Position numbers and translations under genes: made by a program | DNA from: Thermogutta terrifontis | GTDB taxonomy: Bacteria > Planctomycetota > Planctomycetia > Pirellulales > Thermoguttaceae | DNA: 64,000 nucleotides | Direction: 5' to 3' | Assembly (NCBI RefSeq): GCF_002277955.1 | Contig: NZ_CP018477.1 | Coordinates: 4,361,206 to 4,425,205 of the forward strand | Notes under the pieces: model-generated | Told to the model about the DNA's origin: nothing | What the model saw: only the letters and a program-made list of their open reading frames with translations | Databases searched by the model: none | Shown here: positions 40,280-48,692 of the stretch, piece by piece | Position numbering within the stretch: position 1 is the stretch's first letter | Layout: each line of letters begins with the position of its first letter

Positions 40280-41266
40280 TCACCCCCGCCATGGCTTTCC
40301 GATGTTCCTTCGAGCAAGGTCGGCGCACGCTTCGGACACCCTCCTTGCAAATCTGCAGAAAAGCGCGGAGGAGGAGCTACCTCCAGACCGAATCGCCAGA
40401 TCCAGAGCGCATCGGTCGCCTAAAGTGCGATCTGACGCATCCCCAGCGGCGATATCTGGGCACATTCTTCCGTCACCGCGATGTGCAGCAAGGATCGCTT
40501 CAACGGCGCGCTTGTACCATCGAGCGCAATCTGTCTGCGGCTGAAACTCATTGAGTGCCCGCAGGAACTTAGACAATTGCTCTTGCAGCACGTTACTCGG
40601 TAGATCGAGCAAAACGGTGAGGCTTCCCGGCTTGGTGGGATCAGCAACCTCTTTAAGCAAGTCTTTCACCGTGTTGGCCGCCTCGATTGCGTCCAGAAAT
40701 GTTGTGTTTGGGTCGCTAGAGTGCTCGTCGCCTTTTCCTGAAGGGTCAGTTGACATGATCGGGCTATTCTTGACATACCGATACAAATTCCCATCACCAC
40801 CAGCGAAGCCGATCGGGTCCTCGCTCAGCCAGCGGCCGACGTGGGCATCGTACCAGCGGTTGAGATTGTTTTGAAGGTCCGTGTCACTATCGAATGGTCT
40901 ACTGGTGAATAAAAAGAGACTATCAATCGTCGGATTACTTTCCGACGTGACCCGGCCAAAAGCGTCATAAGTGAGGTGATTGACCACGGTGGTCATGTCG
41001 CTGCCCGGATCATACTTGGCGACGTCCCGGACCGTGTTCAGGTGGTCCGTCAGCGTCCACTGTACAAGGTCGGCCGTGCCGCCGTCAACGGTCTCCTCGG
41101 CCAGGATCTGATCCACCGCCGGGCCCCAAAATACCGCTGGCGGAGGTGGCCGATCTGAGGGTGCTCGAAGCTGCTCGCCAAACAGCCCGGCACGTGCGTT
41201 CATCGGGGTTGGTTGGGTAAGTGATCGTTTTGGCCGGCGCCTCCTGAACCGCGCTTTTTCTGACAA
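40280..41266 (-). CDS. Orphan RHS core with variable tip
   Basis: RHS homology begins at WGPAVDQILAEE (about 41128) and includes TLTDHLNTVRDVAKYD, FLFTSRPFDSD, NRWYDAHVGRWLSEDPIGF and NLYRYVKNSPIMSTDPSG. A tip of about 170 residues follows, mostly helical, with four cysteines (for example QTDCARWYKRAVEAILAAH, RRVSEACADLARR). The frame is open further upstream to a TTG at 41266, which overlaps the end of the preceding gene by 67 bases; that N-terminal part has no RHS similarity and is probably not native. The downstream partner is the TPR-like protein. Confidence 0.65.
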   Translation of the reverse strand: MSEKARFRRRRPKRSLTQPTPMNARAGLFGEQLRAPSDRPPPPAVFWGPAVDQILAEETVDGGTADLVQWTLTDHLNTVRDVAKYDPGSDMTTVVNHLTYDAFGRVTSESNPTIDSLFLFTSRPFDSDTDLQNNLNRWYDAHVGRWLSEDPIGFAGGDGNLYRYVKNSPIMSTDPSGKGDEHSSDPNTTFLDAIEAANTVKDLLKEVADPTKPGSLTVLLDLPSNVLQEQLSKFLRALNEFQPQTDCARWYKRAVEAILAAHRGDGRMCPDIAAGDASDRTLGDRCALDLAIRSGGSSSSALFCRFARRVSEACADLARRNIGKPWRG

Positions 41267-42189
41267 GTCTCGTTGGCGTCATTGCTCCCTGAGGCCCCAT
41301 TTCCCTCCCTCGGTGGAGCAGCACGACCGTTCGTGAAACGTGAGCCGGGGTGGCGTAACCCCTTCGGCGGAACCACCGTCCCGTCCATCAGTACTACAAC
41401 ATTGAGAATGGAGGGCAAGCCCCCCAATGCTCCGCCTGGCCTACCCCAATACTCGATGACCCAATACCACCGATCACCCGCGCGCGGCACGAGGCTGATG
41501 CCTTCCAGGGACCATAGCGTGTCTCTGTCGGCAGAAGACCTGAGCAGTCTCGCCTTCTCCCGCTCGGCCAGGGCAAGTGCCTTTCTGGCCGACAGGGGCG
41601 GATTCGCTTCATTCGGTCGCCACGGCGGACTGCGCCGAAGCATTTCGCAGGATATCGTGGTGACAAAGTCCCGGCCATTAAACGAGCTGTACACCTTTTC
41701 TCTTACCGGCAATGACGGAGTGCCCGGTCTTGTTGCCCAATAGATCGACGGCGACTCGTCATCCCGTATACCATACTCCCTGGGCTGAACGAGCGTCCCA
41801 TCCAGCAGCACCGCAAGCGTGAGCCCATACAGCTCGTCGCGGTCATAGTGGACCTTATAGGAAATTTCCCAATACCAGTGGTCCTCCCAGGGCCTAAGCC
41901 TAACTTTATCCAGGTACCAAAAAATACCATGCTGTGGCGAGTCCTTGACCAGTCGGGACTTTTCCTTCTCCGCAAGTTTGAGTGCCTTTCTGGCCGGAAA
42001 AGGCGGATTCGGCTCGCTCTCACGCCAGGGGGGAGATCCGTCCAAAGCTTCCCAGGAAATCTCTGTGGAGAACACCCTTGTGTCCGGAGAGCAGTCCTCC
42101 CACGTTATAGCAGGGCCCGGCTCTACGTCAGGACAACGAGGCCCCAGAACAACCGCAATCGCGAAAAACAAATTTGAGACGACACGCAT
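41200..42189 (-). CDS. Exported two-fold repeat protein, partner gene of an RHS tip
   Basis: A 329-residue protein with a weak signal sequence (LFFAIAVVLG). The body is an internal duplication. Repeat 1 (about 38-150) and repeat 2 (about 170-275) share the order FxTxIS, SPPWRxxExNPP, ARKALxLAExEKxRL, a WxLxxxxLxP segment, WYWxIxY, and VVLMDGTxVxP. The pattern of a helix followed by a WYW strand and a final xDGT turn resembles tandem PepSY-like domains, at low certainty. The last 50 residues are polar and disordered. It starts 26 bases after the RHS tip gene at 42216, which suggests coupling and possibly immunity. Confidence 0.6.
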   Translation of the reverse strand: MRVVSNLFFAIAVVLGPRCPDVEPGPAITWEDCSPDTRVFSTEISWEALDGSPPWRESEPNPPFPARKALKLAEKEKSRLVKDSPQHGIFWYLDKVRLRPWEDHWYWEISYKVHYDRDELYGLTLAVLLDGTLVQPREYGIRDDESPSIYWATRPGTPSLPVREKVYSSFNGRDFVTTISCEMLRRSPPWRPNEANPPLSARKALALAEREKARLLRSSADRDTLWSLEGISLVPRAGDRWYWVIEYWGRPGGALGGLPSILNVVVLMDGTVVPPKGLRHPGSRFTNGRAAPPREGNGASGSNDANETCQKKRGSGGAGQNDHLPNQPR

Positions 42190-42215
42190 AAGACACTTTT
42201 TCAGCTACAAAGGCA

Positions 42216-43017
42216 TCACGCAATATTACCTGGCCATGGCTCCGGGAGCTCTCCAGCGAACAACATCTGCACAACACGTGTTGCGCCGGACGTTGTCCAT
42301 GTCGCTATGACTTTACGAACAAAGGTACCCGACCTCGGCTGAAGCCCCGCAAACGCGTTGGCGTTTCTTGTAGAACGCAACTCCCCCGCATGGGTCATCG
42401 GATTGTTGGGAACAAAGTCGGCCGGCAAGTTCGTGTATGGATAGAACGCGGCAAATCCTGTCATCACGATGGTGCCGCAAGTGTCTGGGAGGCCATTAGG
42501 CTGGCTGAATTCGTCATCGACAGCCACTCCCGGCCTGGTCACTGGGGATGGCTGACCTGGCCGCACTTCCCACGCTTCCCAATAGCCCCACCTTCCATCA
42601 TCCCGCGGATCGTGAATTCTGTTGCCGTTTGCATCCCTGACATCGAACTCAGCCGTGACATACTGTATAATCCAGCTTGTCGAGGGAAGGCCTGTGTGTT
42701 TTGGCGGCATGATGGGGCGAGGTTCTACAATCCAATTGATGACGGCCCTGAAGCCCCCCCATTTGCCTTCGTTTACCCGAGGCCGAGCTCCTACCCGGAG
42801 AGAATAATACCGGACGGGTTCCCATTCGGCTGCCCCTTCGCCGGTGGGATCGGGAATCGTCCCCGGGCTATTGCCGCAGTAAACATACAGGTTCACCCCA
42901 CCACCGAATTGGATCGGGTCTTCGCTCAGCCAGCGGCCGACACGGGCATCGTACCAGCGGTTGAGGTTGTTCTGCAGGCCAGTGTCGGCATCGAATGGCC
43001 GGGCCGCGAAGAACTTT
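42216..43017 (-). CDS. Orphan RHS core (variant type) with variable tip
   Basis: The fragment begins after an in-frame TGA at about 43018 with FFAARPFDADTGLQNNLNRW, then GRWLSEDPIQFGGGVNLYVYCG and NSPGTIPDPTG. PIQFGGGVNLYVYC differs from the PIGFAGGDGNLYRYV type of the other copies, so this core came from a different RHS lineage. The tip (about 200 residues) is rich in Trp, Pro and Arg and looks like a beta-rich globular domain; no family is recognised. There is no credible start codon. Its partner gene starts 26 bases downstream. Confidence 0.65.
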
Positions 43018-43127
43018 CAATCATCACTCATAGAATTGCTCAGACAGATAATCACTCCACATGACACTTCGTAGATAGACCGATGTCGCTTTTCAGTGTG
43101 CAAACAACGATGCAAAACCGATGGTGA

Positions 43128-43874
43128 CTATTCATCCGTGGTGTGATTAACCAGTGACAACACGACCGGATATTCAATAACCTGGTAACGAATAACTTGA
43201 CCAGCATCCCTCCCTTGATCCAGGCAAATCCAGCAATCTCCCATGGTGTTGACGATGTAATAATACCTGGCCTTCTGCGATGCATTCCGTGCGTCTCGCT
43301 TTGACTCATCGAGGAAGGCGAACCACTGCTCTTTTGGTGCATGTCGAGACTTTATTGCGAGATCCTCAATATATTGGCAAGGATCCCATTTTCTCTCAAC
43401 CATCCCCGTAGTCTTCCCTTCTCGAATTAGGGTCCTAAAGTCCACGTTGAGAATAGCTCGGTCCTCGAGGATCAAACAACAGTTAAACCGGGGGACAAGA
43501 TGCGAATACCCAAGGAAATAATCGAGGATGCTCATTTGTGCGGAATACTCGACTCCCTGAGATACATGATGGAAGGTAAGATTCCCCTGTTTGTCAGAGC
43601 GAAGAGGTTTACTAGGTAGAAAGTCAGTGACGGGATAACCCCACGATACCTGTCCTACTTCATCTACCACCCGTAACTCAACCCCTTCAACCGGGTTGCC
43701 GCGGCGGTCAAGGAATGTCATCCGCACTTCCACCGTGGGGTAGCTTCCCACAAATTCTGAAGGCAACTGGAGCACATACAGGCCTACACCCACCCCTAAC
43801 GCACCTAACAATACGCCACCAAAGACCCACAAGAGTTTCTGGCGAGAGCATCGCAACGCCAACATAGGGTACAA
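43128..43874 (-). CDS. Membrane-anchored partner protein of the metallopeptidase-like RHS tip
   Basis: A 248-residue protein with one N-terminal transmembrane helix (about 14-35; LLWVFGGVLLGALGVGVGLY). Next comes a beta-sandwich-like region (VEVRMTFLDRRGNPVEGVELRV, RSDKQGNLTFHHVSQG) resembling carboxypeptidase-regulatory-like domains, and then a mixed region with cysteines. It starts only 4 bases after the stop of the tip gene at 43879, so the two are translationally coupled. This spacing and the anchoring outside the cytoplasm fit an immunity role, but no homologue is recognised. Base composition is more AT-rich than the flanking housekeeping genes. Confidence 0.65.
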   Translation of the reverse strand: MYPMLALRCSRQKLLWVFGGVLLGALGVGVGLYVLQLPSEFVGSYPTVEVRMTFLDRRGNPVEGVELRVVDEVGQVSWGYPVTDFLPSKPLRSDKQGNLTFHHVSQGVEYSAQMSILDYFLGYSHLVPRFNCCLILEDRAILNVDFRTLIREGKTTGMVERKWDPCQYIEDLAIKSRHAPKEQWFAFLDESKRDARNASQKARYYYIVNTMGDCWICLDQGRDAGQVIRYQVIEYPVVLSLVNHTTDE

Positions 43875-43878
43875 CCTT

Positions 43879-44570
43879 TTATGGAGAAGATAGACTTCCG
43901 CACTTGCGCGCAGCGCGAGTCTTCATCCAATTGTACACAGGATTGCCTCGTAAACTGTGACCCGGTACCACCAGCCACATAATTGTGTGAGCATTCATCA
44001 GTTCGCCCTTTGAGTCATCATCGACTGTCCCATACATGTGCGTCAGTTCGTGGAACAGAATTCGGTCCTGCCAATCGACATCCCTCTCGAACCAAGTCGG
44101 ACGAATCCCCTGATTGAACGCAATGTACGGCCGAGGAAAACCGATAATGGAAAAAATGGGAAAAGTCGGTCCCTGAATCGCGTCGGAATCAGGATGCGAA
44201 GAGCTAAGATCATACCTAAAAAACCGGAGGACATCCTTCTTCGAGCGAATCCCGTTCAACACTCTAGCCAACACGTTCCGGAGGGCTTGCAGTTCTCTAC
44301 CAAGCTCGCAACGCATGCATTGGGACAGACTGCTCATCTCCAAATCAATTTCCTTAATCACAAGGGGCAATCGGAAGGCGATTCGATCCAGAGACTGCAT
44401 CACCATGGATCGAAATCCATCCGGCCATTCATAACCTGCCCATTCTCCCCACACGATTAAGTACAAGCCATTTGGGTCTATTCCATATGATGCACGATTT
44501 CCCACATACCGATACAAATTCCCGTCGCCACCGGCAAAGCCGATCGGGTCCGCGCTCAGCCAGCGGCCGA
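43879..44570 (-). CDS. Orphan RHS tip with zinc-metallopeptidase motif (HExxHxxGxxD)
   Basis: Only 66 bases of RHS core remain (VGRWLSADPIGFAGGDG, NLYRYVGN, then DPNGLY). The tip of about 190 residues carries HELTHMYGTVD at about 44052-44020, which fits HExxHxxGxxD: two His and one Asp zinc ligands plus the catalytic Glu, as in snapalysin-type metzincins. A Met follows in NAHTIMW. An N-terminal helical region has a Cys pair (SQCMRCELG). Metallopeptidase domains are known among polymorphic toxin tips. There is no start codon in RHS context. The membrane-anchored partner follows after 4 bases. Confidence 0.7.
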
Positions 44571-45454
44571 CTTTTTATGCTTCCACGACCCCGCGACAGT
44601 ACCCTGCGATCATGTCCGACAACTCACGATCACAGTTGTCTCTGCGTGTGGCACATAGGTGCCCCGTTTTAAAGAATACCTTTATTCGGTAACTCATCCC
44701 TGCACAATTTAGTGTAATGTGTGCTCTATATTCGGCATTGCAGATTTATTAGCCATACTCGCGGGATACATCACCCATTGGCGATTCTTGCGGATCCAGA
44801 CAACCTTGAGCGGCACACGGAAAACGACCACGCGATCGCAACAACCGAAACGCGTGTCGCCGGGACATCGGCAGAATAGCTCCAACTCCATCGTTTCCAC
44901 TTCAGCCCGCGGTATCCAATCCACCGAGGCCTCGAACCGCAGGGGGAGTGCGAGATGTCCTCGTGGCTCAACATCCTTCCATACAAAGGCGGGACCTAGC
45001 AATAATCTTGCGTAAAACACAGCATCTGAACCTAACATGTTGTCAATTATACAGAACAAATCGCGACGTTTGTCATATAGTCTACTGTCATACTTCGCGA
45101 TACCATGGAGCGTGGCCATGACAAGCAACTCGGACAACCATACCCGGCAAGGTGTTGGAGACTGATTTTCGAGAATGACCACACCAGAAAGCTTGCATTT
45201 CTGGTGCATTTCATCAAATTCACCAGTAAGCCAAATCAGAGACCCTTTAAGCCTTTGTTTGGATTCCTTGTTTCGAACTCGCTCGTCTGCCCGCTTGGCT
45301 ATCCATCGTTCAAACATCTCGATGTTGACTTTAGTTCCCCTACCTGTAACCCGATCAGGATGCAGTGATTTCATCGTGTCGAGATACGACAGAACGCAGT
45401 CAGTAACTCTCGTATTGTCAAGAAGCAGCATCTCCAGCCGATCGTGGTGAGCTA

Positions 45455-46694
45455 GTGCTCCGTCACAGGAAAATTTTGGGATTGTCTTGGGTGGGTGGGA
45501 TGGGATAGGATCGGTGGTCGTTTCCGTTCCCTTTTGCCAAGGAGGGTTGCCATGCGAAAGAAGTATATTGTCCGGCTGACCGAGGAAGAACGTCAGAAAT
45601 GCCAGGAGGTCATTCGCAAGCTGAAGGGGACCAGCCAGAAGGTCCGTCGCGCTCAGATTCTGCTGAAGGTGGACGCGGACGGTCCGGCCTGGACGGACCA
45701 ACAGATTGCCGAAGCGTTCGGGTGTCGGCGGCAGACGGTAGAGAAGATTCGTCAGCGTTTTGTGGAACGGGGTTTTGAGGAGACGCTGGAAGGGAAGAGC
45801 CGGTCGGGGCACCAGCGAACAAGATTCTGGATGGGGAGGTGGAAGCGAAAATCATTGCCACCCGTTTGGGGCCGCCGCCTGCGGGTTACGGTCAGTGGAC
45901 GCTTCGCCTCCTGGCCCGTCGGTTGGTGGAGCTGAAAGTGGTGGAATCGATCAGCCACGAGACAGTACGCCGGGCGCTAAAAAAAACGAGATCACGGCGC
46001 GGAAGATTCAGTACTGGGTGATACCGCCGGAGGCGGATGCGGAGTTTGTCGCTCAGATGGAAGAGGTGCTGGAGGTGTATTGTCGGCCATATGATCCGTT
46101 GCATCCGGTCGTTTGCATGGATGAGCAGCCGGTGCAGTTGGTGAAGGAAGTGCGGCGTCCGATTCCGGCGACGAGAGGGCATCCCCGGCGAGTGGATTAC
46201 GAGTATGAACGAGCGGGGACGGCGGCGATCTTCCTGTTTTGCGAGCCCTTGGTCGGTTGGCGTCAGGCGACGGCGCGGGAACGTCGGACGAAGAGCGACT
46301 GGGCCACGGAGGTGGCAGCGCTTTTGGACGGGCGTTACGCGGACTGTGAGCGGATCACGCTGATCTGCGACAACCTGAACACGCACACGAAAGGGGCGTT
46401 TTACGAGGTGTTCCCAGCGGAGCGGGCTCGTCAGTACGTTCGTCGCATTGAGTTTGTTTACACGCCGAAACACGGCAGTTGGCTGAACGTGGCGGAGTGC
46501 GAGTTGAGCTGTTTGACCCGGCAGTGCCTGGCGGGGCGTCGTGTGGGAGAGTTACGTCTTCTTCAGGAGGAAATTGCGGCGTGGTCGGGAGACCTCAACG
46601 CTCGGCAGCGGGGTGTCGACTGGCAAATGACCGCGGAAGATGCCCGCTGCAAACTGAAGTCTGTTTATCCCAAAATTATCCTGTGACGGAGCAC
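45455..46694 (+). mobile_element. IS630-family insertion sequence, 1240 bp
   Basis: Terminal inverted repeats of 28 bases (45455-45482 and 46667-46694) match at 27 positions; they begin GTGCTCCGTCACAGG. The element is flanked by TA on both sides (45453-45454 and 46695-46696), the target duplication of IS630/Tc1-mariner elements. It contains one transposase gene in three frames and interrupts the LRR gene on the opposite strand. Confidence 0.9.
45552..46686 (+). CDS. IS630-family DDE transposase, read in three frames
   Basis: Frame 1 from the ATG at 45552 (after AAGGAGGG) gives the helix-turn-helix part (QKVRRAQILLKVDADG, WTDQQIAEAFGC, RFVERGFEETLEGKS). At about 45805-45815 similarity moves by -1 to PANKILDGEVEAKIIATR and WTLRLLARRLVEL up to RRALKK. 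At the A8 run (45968-45976) it moves by -1 again to NEITARKIQYW. The catalytic DDE residues lie in the last frame: VVCMDEQPVQL, LICDNLNTHT and TPKHGSWLNVAE. The A8 run is a typical slippery site (A AAA AAC), so the second shift may be programmed; the first, at GGGG, may be a mutation. The stop lies inside the right inverted repeat. Confidence 0.8.
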
Positions 46695-47415
46695 TAGATA
46701 CGCAATACCGTTATCTGTCACTGCAGTCCCTGCTAAGTTAAGCACTCGCAGATGCGTAAGCCCGCGCAGCTCCTTCAAGGCTTTGTCGGTAATCGCGGTA
46801 TTCGACAGATCAAGCACCTCAAGGCATTGCAATTCCGAAATCCATGCCGCTACCTTGTCTGTCACTTTTGTGTTCGGCAGTCCCAACTCGCGAAGATGTT
46901 TCCGGCTTGAGATTAACTGCCATGCACCCAAATCAGTAATAGTATCTCCACCAACAACCAAACCTTCAATGTTTTCGCCGTTGCCGAAATCCCTTAACCA
47001 TTGGTCCGAAAGTCCAACGTTGTACAGACAAATACGCTTAAGCTGTGGAAGTGCTGCCAAACTTCTAATCGATCTACGGTTAAGCCTGGTCCTGCTAATA
47101 TCAACGTCCACTAGAAACCGCCAGTGGTCAAACGAAACATCAACTACTTTGTCGAAACCACAATCCTGAATCTTCATATACCTCAGCAAGCGCAGGCGCT
47201 TTAGGTGGTCCCAAGCATTTGGCGTGATAGTCGTGCCGACTATAAAAACATCCTCAGCACGTGGGAGCAAGTGATGTCTGGAAACCTGGTCCCATATTGT
47301 TTCCCGGGTGACCATAAATCCGTCGGTCGTTTGTAGGACACGCAGGGAAAGCGATTCTTCATGCCAAGCAGCCCACTCCCTAGACATCCACAAGCAAAGC
47401 ACGAGGAACCAGGTA

Positions 47416-48655
47416 TTAAAGGTAAGCATTGATGAGAACCTCCACTGGGCATTCCGGTGAGCACAACAGGTCGCTCTGACGCCACGCCCTTATGCACGTA
47501 GCGCACCAAGCCCCGCAACAGCGGTCCTTGTCTCCTAGACAATTCATAGTTAGAGTCAGACCACAGAACCCTCTCGCGTCGGGAGGCAGCTTGTAGCGCC
47601 TGTCACTTGGCCCAATACCCTCTCTCATCTGACGCTCCATATCCTTATCACATATCACATATATCGTCACTGTGTCACAGCGTTGATTCGCCTCGCCACA
47701 TTTGTAACGCTCTGGTCGCCCATCGTCACAGAACTTTCTACGATTATCACACAGCTTCTGCTGAAACTCCTTGGCCTTGTTAATTGCATTGCGTAGGCCC
47801 GCAAACGCGTTCTCTTCACGTATCACCCGGTGCCATTCCGGGAACCCGGGTATTCGGTACCGCTCTGGGATCGTACCGTGCTGATATTGTGAAGAAAAAC
47901 AAGAGACGATACCAACATAGTTCCCGCATCTGGTCACTATGGAGTGATTTGGAACCGCGTGCTGATTGATGAACTCGCTCGCTTCTAAACCAAAATGACC
48001 ACCGAAAATCCAAATATGACAGGGCCAGTAACTTGTGGTTCCCCGCTTCGACTGCCTCTAAAGTCTATAAAGTTACTCGGATTGTTCTGAACATACCGAT
48101 ACAAATTCCCGTCACCCCCCGCGAAGCCGATCGGGTCCTCGCTCAGCCAGCGGCCCACGCGGGCATCGTACCAGCGGTTGAGGTTGTTCTGAAGTTGGGT
48201 GTCACTATCGAACGGTCTACCCGTGAATACAAAGAGACTATTGCTGACTAACAACGGACAGTTATTAAAGAAGAAAATATCCCCTGCTGCCGGATTAGAG
48301 CCTATCCGAAAACCGAAGTGCGTCCAGGGAATCACGCCAATGTTGAGGTTTTCGGATAGATTCTTATTCTCCGACGTCACCTTGCCGAAGGCGTCGTAGA
48401 TGAGGTGGTTGACCACGGTCATCGCCCCCTTGCCTCCGCCAAATCTGGGTTGTCCAGCCTTGGGTCCACGCTGCCAAGCGTTTGTGGGCCGAAGCTGACA
48501 ATATCCCGGATTGTGCCTAGCGGAAATGTCCCAAACGGTATTCAGTTGGTCCGTCCAGTGTGCCGTTAACGCGTTTACGTGGTCCGTCAGCGTCCACTGT
48601 ACGGTTTCATCAGCCCCGTTGTCAACATTTTCCTCGGCCAGAATCTAATCCGCCG
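47416..48655 (-). pseudogene. RHS core with Cys-rich tip, containing a stop and a frameshift
   Basis: Homology starts near PAADxILAEENVDNGADE, where the conserved Gln codon is TAG (48647-48645). The core contains extra sequence (DHVNALTAHWTDQLNTVWD) and a miniature element (48298-48364), then FTGRPFDSD, NRWYDARVGRWLSEDPIGF and NLYRYVQNNPSNFIDFRG. The frame stops at 47985, but another frame continues with GGHFGLEASEFINQHAVPN and a tip of about 175 residues with 15 or more cysteines, ending at 47416. The shift lies in the T-rich stretch near 48005-48015. The LRR partner gene starts within the last codons. The piece begins 37 bases after the DUF58 stop. Confidence 0.7.
48298..48364. mobile_element. 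TA-flanked miniature inverted-repeat element, copy 2
   Basis: A 67-base unit between TA dinucleotides (48296-48297 and 48365-48366), with inverted ends CTATCCGAAAACC/GGTTTTCGGATAG. Compared with the uninterrupted RHS core (GGATTACTCTCCGACG at about 150), it is inserted at the TA of GGATTA. Its length keeps the RHS frame open, adding codons that read NLSENLNIGVIPWT. Confidence 0.6.
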
Positions 48656-48692
48656 CAGGGTTGGCAGGAAGAGTTTGTCGCAGGGGAGGCGC

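What the first reader, a model, noticed from the sequence alone, without database searches (positions are those of the whole stretch)
43879..44570. RHS tip with a snapalysin-like HExxHxxGxxD motif and a 4-base-coupled membrane-anchored partner
The zinc motif is complete and the tip is otherwise unfamiliar. Its partner has one N-terminal helix and an extracytoplasmic domain, so it could block a protease in the envelope. This is the tip with the clearest predicted chemistry.
Basis: partly seen in the sequence, partly recalled or inferred. Interest (0 to 1): 0.6.

Follow-up and report, generated by a model that had tools for sequence, protein, structure and literature searches.

The report
Orphan RHS toxin tip, probable metalloprotease
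This stretch of a hot-spring bacterium's chromosome looks like a spare, currently unarmed warhead for a bacterial weapon protein: probably a zinc protease stored next to a membrane-bound protector, one of about twenty such spares found alongside a single complete weapon gene.

Summary
Window 44574-43879 (minus strand) encodes the last 36 residues of an RHS core plus a 195-residue tip with HELTHMYGTVDDD. It lacks a credible start codon and any export signal: an orphan RHS C-terminal cassette. The downstream partner has one N-terminal hydrophobic segment; the gap is 4 bases with a TTG start, 13 with the ATG behind AAAAGG. The genome's length equals that of Thermogutta terrifontis R1. Of 23 RHS ends read, one belongs to a full-length gene (2335 aa). 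A 2,228-bp block of the neighbouring cassettes is 98.2% identical to one in a distant array, both ends in RHS core, so cassettes do move. The tip matches no Pfam, NCBIfam or PHROG toxin or peptidase family, and protein searches gave no convincing relative. A motif scan gave one probable relative: the tip of a 1355-aa RHS protein of a PVC-group MAG, whose partner also starts with a hydrophobic segment. 'Snapalysin-like' is too specific: an aspzincin (M35) shares the spacing, and an M35 model fits both tips slightly better than chance, but only around the motif. Structure prediction failed (pLDDT 51, 38). Best reading: a silent zincin toxin cassette with envelope immunity. Interest moderate.

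The parts
44467..44574 (-). RHS core remnant (36 residues, KVGRWLSADPIGFAGGDGNLYRYVGNRASYGIDPNG), preceded by TAA at 44577-44575
   Evidence: TIGR03696 partial match; 68 bp at 91% identity to the full-length RHS gene, longest exact run 20 bp
43879..44466 (-). toxin tip, 195 residues plus stop, no family match beyond the RHS end
   Evidence: searches of 392 phylum and 396 order genomes gave, besides itself, only 14 and 4 weak partial hits (best E 0.0105 and 0.002), 7 of these 18 read and judged chance
44014..44052 (-). HELTHMYGTVDDD: HExxHxxGxxD zinc-peptidase motif followed by two more Asp
43128..43865 (-). partner gene from ATG (TTG alternative at 43874): N-terminal hydrophobic segment, then a part predicted to lie outside the cytoplasm; predicted immunity protein
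   Evidence: SpaA prealbumin-like fold only at E 0.12, below cut-off
43875..43880 (-). AAAAGG, likely ribosome-binding site for the ATG at 43865; overlaps the tip's stop codon
   Evidence: read from the sequence
42216..43012 (-). next orphan cassette: RHS core end plus tip; the same tip also at 3.667 Mb
41200..42189 (-). partner of that cassette, signal-peptide-like start
40773..43000 (-). 2,228-bp block 98.2% identical to genome 3667604-3669831; both ends lie in RHS core sequence
40280..41266 (-). further RHS fragment with another tip
   Evidence: (TIGR03696 70.6 bits)
47416..48660 (-). upstream RHS fragment and tip-like frame, reading frame interrupted between them
44709..47429 (-). leucine-rich-repeat partner of the upstream cassette, apparently split by an insertion sequence at about 45452-46697; that the part below 45452 is its continuation is inferred (no LRR match there)
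   Evidence: LRR_8 3.8e-12 for 46665-47429, none for 44709-45812; 31-bp inverted ends; DDE_3 transposase

Best explanation
This is an orphan RHS C-terminal toxin/immunity cassette. SHOWN: the tip is joined in frame to the last 36 residues of an RHS core, lacks a credible start codon and an export signal, carries a complete HExxHxxGxxD motif, is followed at once by a gene with one N-terminal hydrophobic segment, and lies in one of several arrays of such cassettes in a genome where only one of the RHS ends read belongs to a full-length gene; neighbouring cassettes have been copied between arrays with borders in RHS core. INFERRED: the tip is a zinc metallopeptidase (zincin with an Asp third ligand), toxic to competing cells once recombination places it on the full-length RHS protein; its partner, held on the outer face of the cytoplasmic membrane, binds the tip and protects the producer, which points to an envelope site of action. 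My estimates per step: orphan cassette 0.95; zinc peptidase 0.75; partner is its immunity protein 0.75; acts in the envelope 0.5; becomes expressed by recombination 0.6.
For: RHS end and missing start; one full-length gene among 23 RHS ends read; 28 matches to the RHS end in the genome; 98.2% block with both ends in RHS core; motif rarer than chance; one of 15 genome-collection motif hits is the tip of a 1355-aa RHS protein (RHS_repeat 8.1e-19) with FHELTHxYGxxDD, having 8 of 32 extra identities beside the motif against 0-4 of 32 for the other 14; its partner's ATG overlaps the tip's stop codon as ATGA and begins with a hydrophobic segment (17-residue mean 2.04); the relative has a sub-threshold Reprolysin_5 match over the motif region (E 0.0015, 19.2 bits, cut-off 27). 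Orphan Rhs cassettes that work after recombination are documented (PMC3967940, passages), as is a metallopeptidase toxin of the periplasm with a periplasmic immunity protein (PMC6899460, passages).
Against: Whole, the two tips score above all of 5000 shuffles, but with the motif masked 1632 of 5000 reach the score, before the motif 1295, after it 207; and the relative was chosen by that motif. No peptidase family matches the focal tip. Structure prediction failed, and the models are mostly helical. Homology to the full-length RHS gene is only 68 bp with a longest exact run of 20 bp, against 522 bp in the Salmonella case, so direct recombination may be rare; a 44-bp exact run is shared with a cassette in another array. 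A hydrophobic N-terminus is common among partners here (11 of 20; two of the 11 are copies of one gene), so it is weak evidence on the site of action. The two partners show no sequence likeness.
Confidence: 0.6

Rival explanations
1. The tip is specifically an aspzincin-like (M35-type) peptidase: HExxH plus a GTxD-type Asp, with a shortened linker.
For: L062, a Pfam-confirmed Aspzincin_M35 protein, has the same HELTHxxGxxDD spacing, and another M35 locus reads HELMHAYAGVDD. On a model of 19 M35 domains the L053 tip scores 13.6 bits (8 of 2000 motif-keeping shuffles reach it) and the focal tip 9.5 bits (36 of 2000); the other 13 non-M35 motif hits score -1.4 to 7.1. The focal tip has GTVD as many M35 members have GTxD.
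Against: The alignment to the model covers only 23 (focal) and 37 (L053) residues around the motif; i-E-values are 0.2 and 0.012; an earlier, poorer model from 6 domains gave the focal tip 3.4 bits (19 of 300 shuffles); Pfam's Aspzincin_M35 was not reported for either tip; parts before and after the motif are not alike in pairwise tests; the 19 domains include two below Pfam's cut-off (L089, L093).
Confidence: 0.35
2. The tip is a metzincin of snapalysin type, with HExxHxxGxxD and the Met of GELMN as Met-turn.
For: Motif spacing fits HExxHxxGxxD (that this is snapalysin's spacing is recalled, not from a call); a Met follows 8 residues after the first Asp; the relative has a sub-threshold Reprolysin_5 match.
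Against: No Peptidase_M7 match. In the relative the next Met is 51 residues after the Asp pair. The same spacing occurs in M35 and in other proteins among the 15 motif hits.
Confidence: 0.15
3. The cassette is a relic: its RHS remnant is the shortest of the 23 and too short to recombine, and what is kept by selection is at most the partner, as protection against neighbours.
For: Only 36 RHS residues, longest exact run with the full gene 20 bp; neighbouring cassette broken by an insertion sequence and a frame break; no sigma-70-like promoter site in 43000-45200 (0 found, 2.4 expected in shuffles).
Against: Tip and partner frames are intact over 195 and 245 codons; a 44-bp exact run with a cassette in another array exists; orphan immunity genes without detectable toxin protein can be functional (PMC3150448, passages).
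Confidence: 0.25
4. The tip is not a peptidase; the motif is a coincidence in a helical toxin of other chemistry.
For: The best model is mostly helical with no strands, and no peptidase fold was matched.
Against: Models are of low confidence; the motif arises in 4 of 200,000 shuffles and recurs in an RHS tip of another PVC-group genome.
Confidence: 0.13

Closest known systems
Orphan Rhs-CT/RhsI and cdiA-CT/cdiI modules (PMC3967940, PMC3150448; passages read)
   Same: Core remnant plus tip plus immunity gene, no translation start, displaced from one full-length gene; shared blocks bordered by the conserved core motif
   Different: Homology of this cassette to the full-length gene is 68 bp rather than the 522 bp of Salmonella LT2; 22 cassettes were read beside one full-length gene, against the median 1:3 of active toxins to cassettes given in PMC3482391
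Tox-MPTase1-5, HopH1-type and PVC-metallopeptidase toxin domains (PMC3482391; passages read)
   Same: HExxH zincin toxin domains, most with RHS repeats, some reported from planctomycetes
   Different: The motif rows seen there list no HExxHxxGxxD; no Pfam or NCBIfam peptidase model matched the tip
VgrG2b C-terminal metallopeptidase with immunity PA0261 (PMC6899460; passages read)
   Same: HExxH peptidase-fold toxin, active in the periplasm, blocked by a periplasmic immunity protein encoded beside it
   Different: Gluzincin with a Glu third ligand, delivered by T6SS; here an Asp follows the motif and the full-length RHS gene looks secreted rather than T6SS-linked
Aspzincin_M35 (PF14521)
   Same: HExxH followed by Asp; one true member with identical HELTHxxGxxDD spacing
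   Different: No family-level match; likeness stops near the motif
Snapalysin, Peptidase_M7 (PF02031)
   Same: HExxHxxGxxD spacing (recalled)
   Different: No family match; Met not conserved in place in the relative; an RHS tip rather than a free secreted enzyme

Membership tests
Orphan RHS C-terminal toxin/immunity cassette | RHS core end fused in frame to a variable tip | tested here: met
Orphan RHS C-terminal toxin/immunity cassette | no translation start or export signal of its own; full-length gene elsewhere | tested here: met
Orphan RHS C-terminal toxin/immunity cassette | small gene directly downstream that neutralises the tip | tested here: inconclusive
   gene present; neutralisation not testable
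Zincin metallopeptidase (broad) | HExxH plus a third ligand residue at fitting distance | tested here: met
   sequence motif only; shared with L053, which was selected by the motif
Zincin metallopeptidase (broad) | ligands converge in the zincin fold | tested here: inconclusive
   pLDDT 51 and 38; no Foldseek hit at E 0.001
Snapalysin (Peptidase_M7) | match to PF02031 | tested here: not met
   no family for P0001 at E up to 1
Snapalysin (Peptidase_M7) | conserved Met-turn after the motif (feature recalled) | tested here: inconclusive
   Met in focal GELMN, none at that place in L053
Aspzincin_M35 | match to PF14521 | tested here: not met
   not reported for P0001 at E up to 1 or P0003 at E up to 5
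Aspzincin_M35 | better than motif-keeping shuffles on an M35 model | tested here: inconclusive
   focal 36 of 2000, L053 8 of 2000 shuffles reach the score, but the alignment is confined to the motif's surroundings
Tox-MPTase1-5 / HopH1 / PVC-metallopeptidase | match to a curated model of these families | tested here: not met
   no Pfam or NCBIfam peptidase model for P0001; that each of these families has a model in the libraries is recalled

The most novel reading that the evidence does not exclude
A so far unnamed family of RHS-linked zincin toxins with an Asp third ligand and envelope-tethered immunity, spread over the PVC group, held in Thermogutta as one entry of a chromosome-wide silent library of about 22 tips that exchange through RHS core repeats around a single expression site, in the manner of gene-conversion cassettes.
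Probability: 0.35. Interest if true: 0.6.

Novelty: new member of a known kind. Interest (0 to 1): 0.4.

Why it matters
If it is a peptidase that works in the envelope, it adds a toxin/immunity pair from a thermophile, convenient for structure and substrate work. The arrangement, many silent tips and one full-length RHS gene in a cultured organism with published transcriptomes, makes it possible to ask directly how often, and through how short a homology, RHS tips are swapped.

Tried and rejected
Relatives of the tip were sought and not found by protein search: 392 phylum genomes (15 with a match at E 0.1, own included), 396 order genomes (5 at E 0.01, own included; the two sets overlap), plasmids and phages, viral contigs, genome contigs by 8-residue patterns. 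Of the 18 weak hits I read seven (L025, L026, L035, L045-L048) and judged them chance; the other 11, all, were not read. With the L053 tip: viral contigs none; 392 phylum genomes with the two-row profile, only the own genome at E 0.01; 288 genomes of the phylum of G776, three weak hits besides itself, two of them read and without HExxH. Motif scan of viral contigs: 0. PDB by sequence: the focal tip's matches up to E 0.35 are only RHS ends of teneurin-like, Tc-type and Rhs shells (best E 0.0096), later ones chance-level; none for the L053 tip, the two-row profile or the partner.

Considered and dropped: the partner's membrane segment as proof of an envelope toxin (one search shows it is common here; no genome-wide baseline was run); the BLASTP E 4e-6 between the two tips as proof of homology (motif pre-selected); the PF02031 search of the own genome as evidence against snapalysin (no control rang); one search's profile probability of 91% as proof of M35 (three-row template, 35 columns round the motif). 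One search tested an M35 model for which my script had recovered only 6 of 17 domains; I repeated it with 19 of 19, and raised the aspzincin rival from 0.30 to 0.35 for that reason. Literature: Thermogutta with Rhs, 0 papers; snapalysin/metzincin/toxin/Rhs, 1 unrelated paper listed; aspzincin with toxin and Rhs, 0; Planctomycetes with polymorphic Rhs toxins, 3 listed; metalloprotease with Rhs and periplasmic immunity, 4 listed, not opened. In that library and with those words I found no report of this tip.

Full report
What is there. On the minus strand an open frame runs from 44574 to a TAA at 43881-43879, directly after a TAA at 44577-44575. Its first 36 residues are the end of an RHS core; NCBIfam's Rhs_assc_core finds them at E 5.9e-7 (29.9 bits, cut-off 32.5). 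The next 195 residues are the tip, with HELTHMYGTVDDD. There is no ATG before the tip; the one early start is a TTG inside the conserved core. The partner starts at TTG 43874 (4 bases after the stop) or, more credibly, at ATG 43865 (13 bases after the stop, 9 bases after AAAAGG), and ends at 43128. It has one N-terminal hydrophobic segment.

More than chance. HExxHxxGxxD occurs once in six frames of the window, and in 4 of 200,000 shuffles of the tip. No other RHS tip that I read in this genome has HExxH.

Genome context. The window lies in a one-contig genome of 4,810,751 bases, the exact length published for Thermogutta terrifontis R1, CP018477 (PMC5673643, passages); I take it to be that strain. 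A search with the focal frame gave 23 matches to its RHS end; a search with a longer RHS end gave 28. I read the 23 RHS ends from fetched stretches. One belongs to a full-length gene (ATG, 2335 aa, genome 3652861-3659868; RHS repeats in 15 stretches and a Golvesin_C domain); the other 22 have 2 to 456 open-frame residues before GRW, the focal one the fewest. The five further matches were not read, and full-length RHS genes with a very different end were not sought. RHS ends are common in the family: 34 of 61 genomes (own included) have at least one at E 1e-8; the own genome has the most (28, next 14), though nearly all the others are fragmented assemblies.

Evidence that cassettes move. Window 40773-43000 is 98.2% identical over 2,228 bp to genome 3667604-3669831, about 0.73 Mb away and on the other strand. 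The block holds a tip, its partner and the RHS part of the following cassette; both ends lie in RHS core, and the tips beyond differ. This is the pattern described for cdiA-CT modules, where identity starts at one conserved motif and ends at the next (PMC3150448, passages). The focal tip has no second copy in the genome. Its RHS part shares 68 bp at 91% with the full-length gene (longest exact run 20 bp) and a 44-bp exact run with a cassette near 4.356 Mb. In Salmonella LT2 an orphan with 522 bp at 95% recombines with the main gene and so becomes expressed (PMC3967940, passages). Whether the short homology here suffices is open.

Relatives of the tip. Protein searches found none that convinced. 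A scan of the species-genome collection for DNA encoding HE[LF]THxxGxxDD gave 15 stretches, all read. One, L053 (a PVC-group bacterium MAG), is the end of a 1355-aa RHS protein (RHS_repeat 8.1e-19): FHELTHFYGSRDDIDGG. Beside the pattern positions it shares 8 of 32 residues with the focal tip, the other 14 sharing 0-4. Its partner's ATG overlaps the tip's stop codon as ATGA and begins with a hydrophobic segment followed by a Cys. With the motif masked the two tips are not significantly alike, so homology is probable, not proven. The partners are not alike.

Which peptidase. No Pfam, PHROG or PADLOC family was reported for the focal tip; NCBIfam gave the RHS end and one chance-level line. The L053 tip touches Reprolysin_5 at E 0.0015, under the cut-off. 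One of the 15 motif hits, L062, is a true Aspzincin_M35 protein (E 5.5e-26) with the same spacing. On a model of 19 M35 domains the L053 tip scores 13.6 bits (8 of 2000 motif-keeping shuffles reach it) and the focal tip 9.5 (36 of 2000); the other 13 non-M35 motif hits score -1.4 to 7.1. The aligned part does not go beyond the motif's surroundings. So an Asp-type zincin stands as the idea, snapalysin membership is not shown, and M35 is at least as good a lead. AlphaFold2 on a two-row alignment gave pLDDT 51 (pTM 0.54) for the focal tip and 38 for L053; Foldseek on the focal model found nothing at E 0.001.

Site of action. Of 23 cassettes, 20 have a partner candidate of 70 aa or more that starts within -40 to +100 bases; 11 of these have a hydrophobic N-terminal segment (17-residue mean at least 1.6; two of the 11 are copies of one gene; no genome-wide baseline was run). 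The membrane anchor thus fits an envelope toxin but does not single this tip out. A precedent for the whole idea is VgrG2b of Pseudomonas: an HExxH toxin harmless in the cytoplasm, toxic in the periplasm, and blocked by a periplasmic immunity protein (PMC6899460, passages).

Verdict. A silent RHS cassette, probably for a zincin toxin with envelope immunity, of no named tip family, in a large tip collection. It works like the known polymorphic peptidase toxins; its membership in any one peptidase family is not established.

Noticed in passing
window 45452-46697: An insertion sequence (IS630-like by recall) with 31-bp inverted ends and a DDE_3 transposase in two overlapping frames lies within the leucine-rich-repeat partner gene of the upstream cassette.
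   Followed up: partly
window 47416-48422: The upstream RHS end runs into a stop about 20 residues after the core, and a separate tip-like frame (173 aa, Cys-rich) follows and overlaps the LRR partner.
   Followed up: partly
window 40773-43000 and genome C1:3667604-3669831 (L040): 98.2% identical block between two RHS arrays on opposite strands, with both ends inside RHS core.
   Followed up: yes
L041 15867-16253 and L041 10029-10415: Two related tips containing IGHWTWPWNWF in one array, both with partners lacking a hydrophobic N-terminus.
   Followed up: no
L041:14602-15150 (-): One orphan tip carries DUF6973 (PF22322, E 1.9e-21), next to a partner with a strong N-terminal hydrophobic segment.
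   Followed up: no
L040:11457-11837 (+): One orphan tip has a sub-threshold HicA toxin match (E 0.00064).
   Followed up: no
L039 7862-14869: The only full-length RHS gene read (2335 aa) has an N-terminus of the planctomycete LExRxLLS kind (label recalled), suggesting export rather than type VI delivery.
   Followed up: partly
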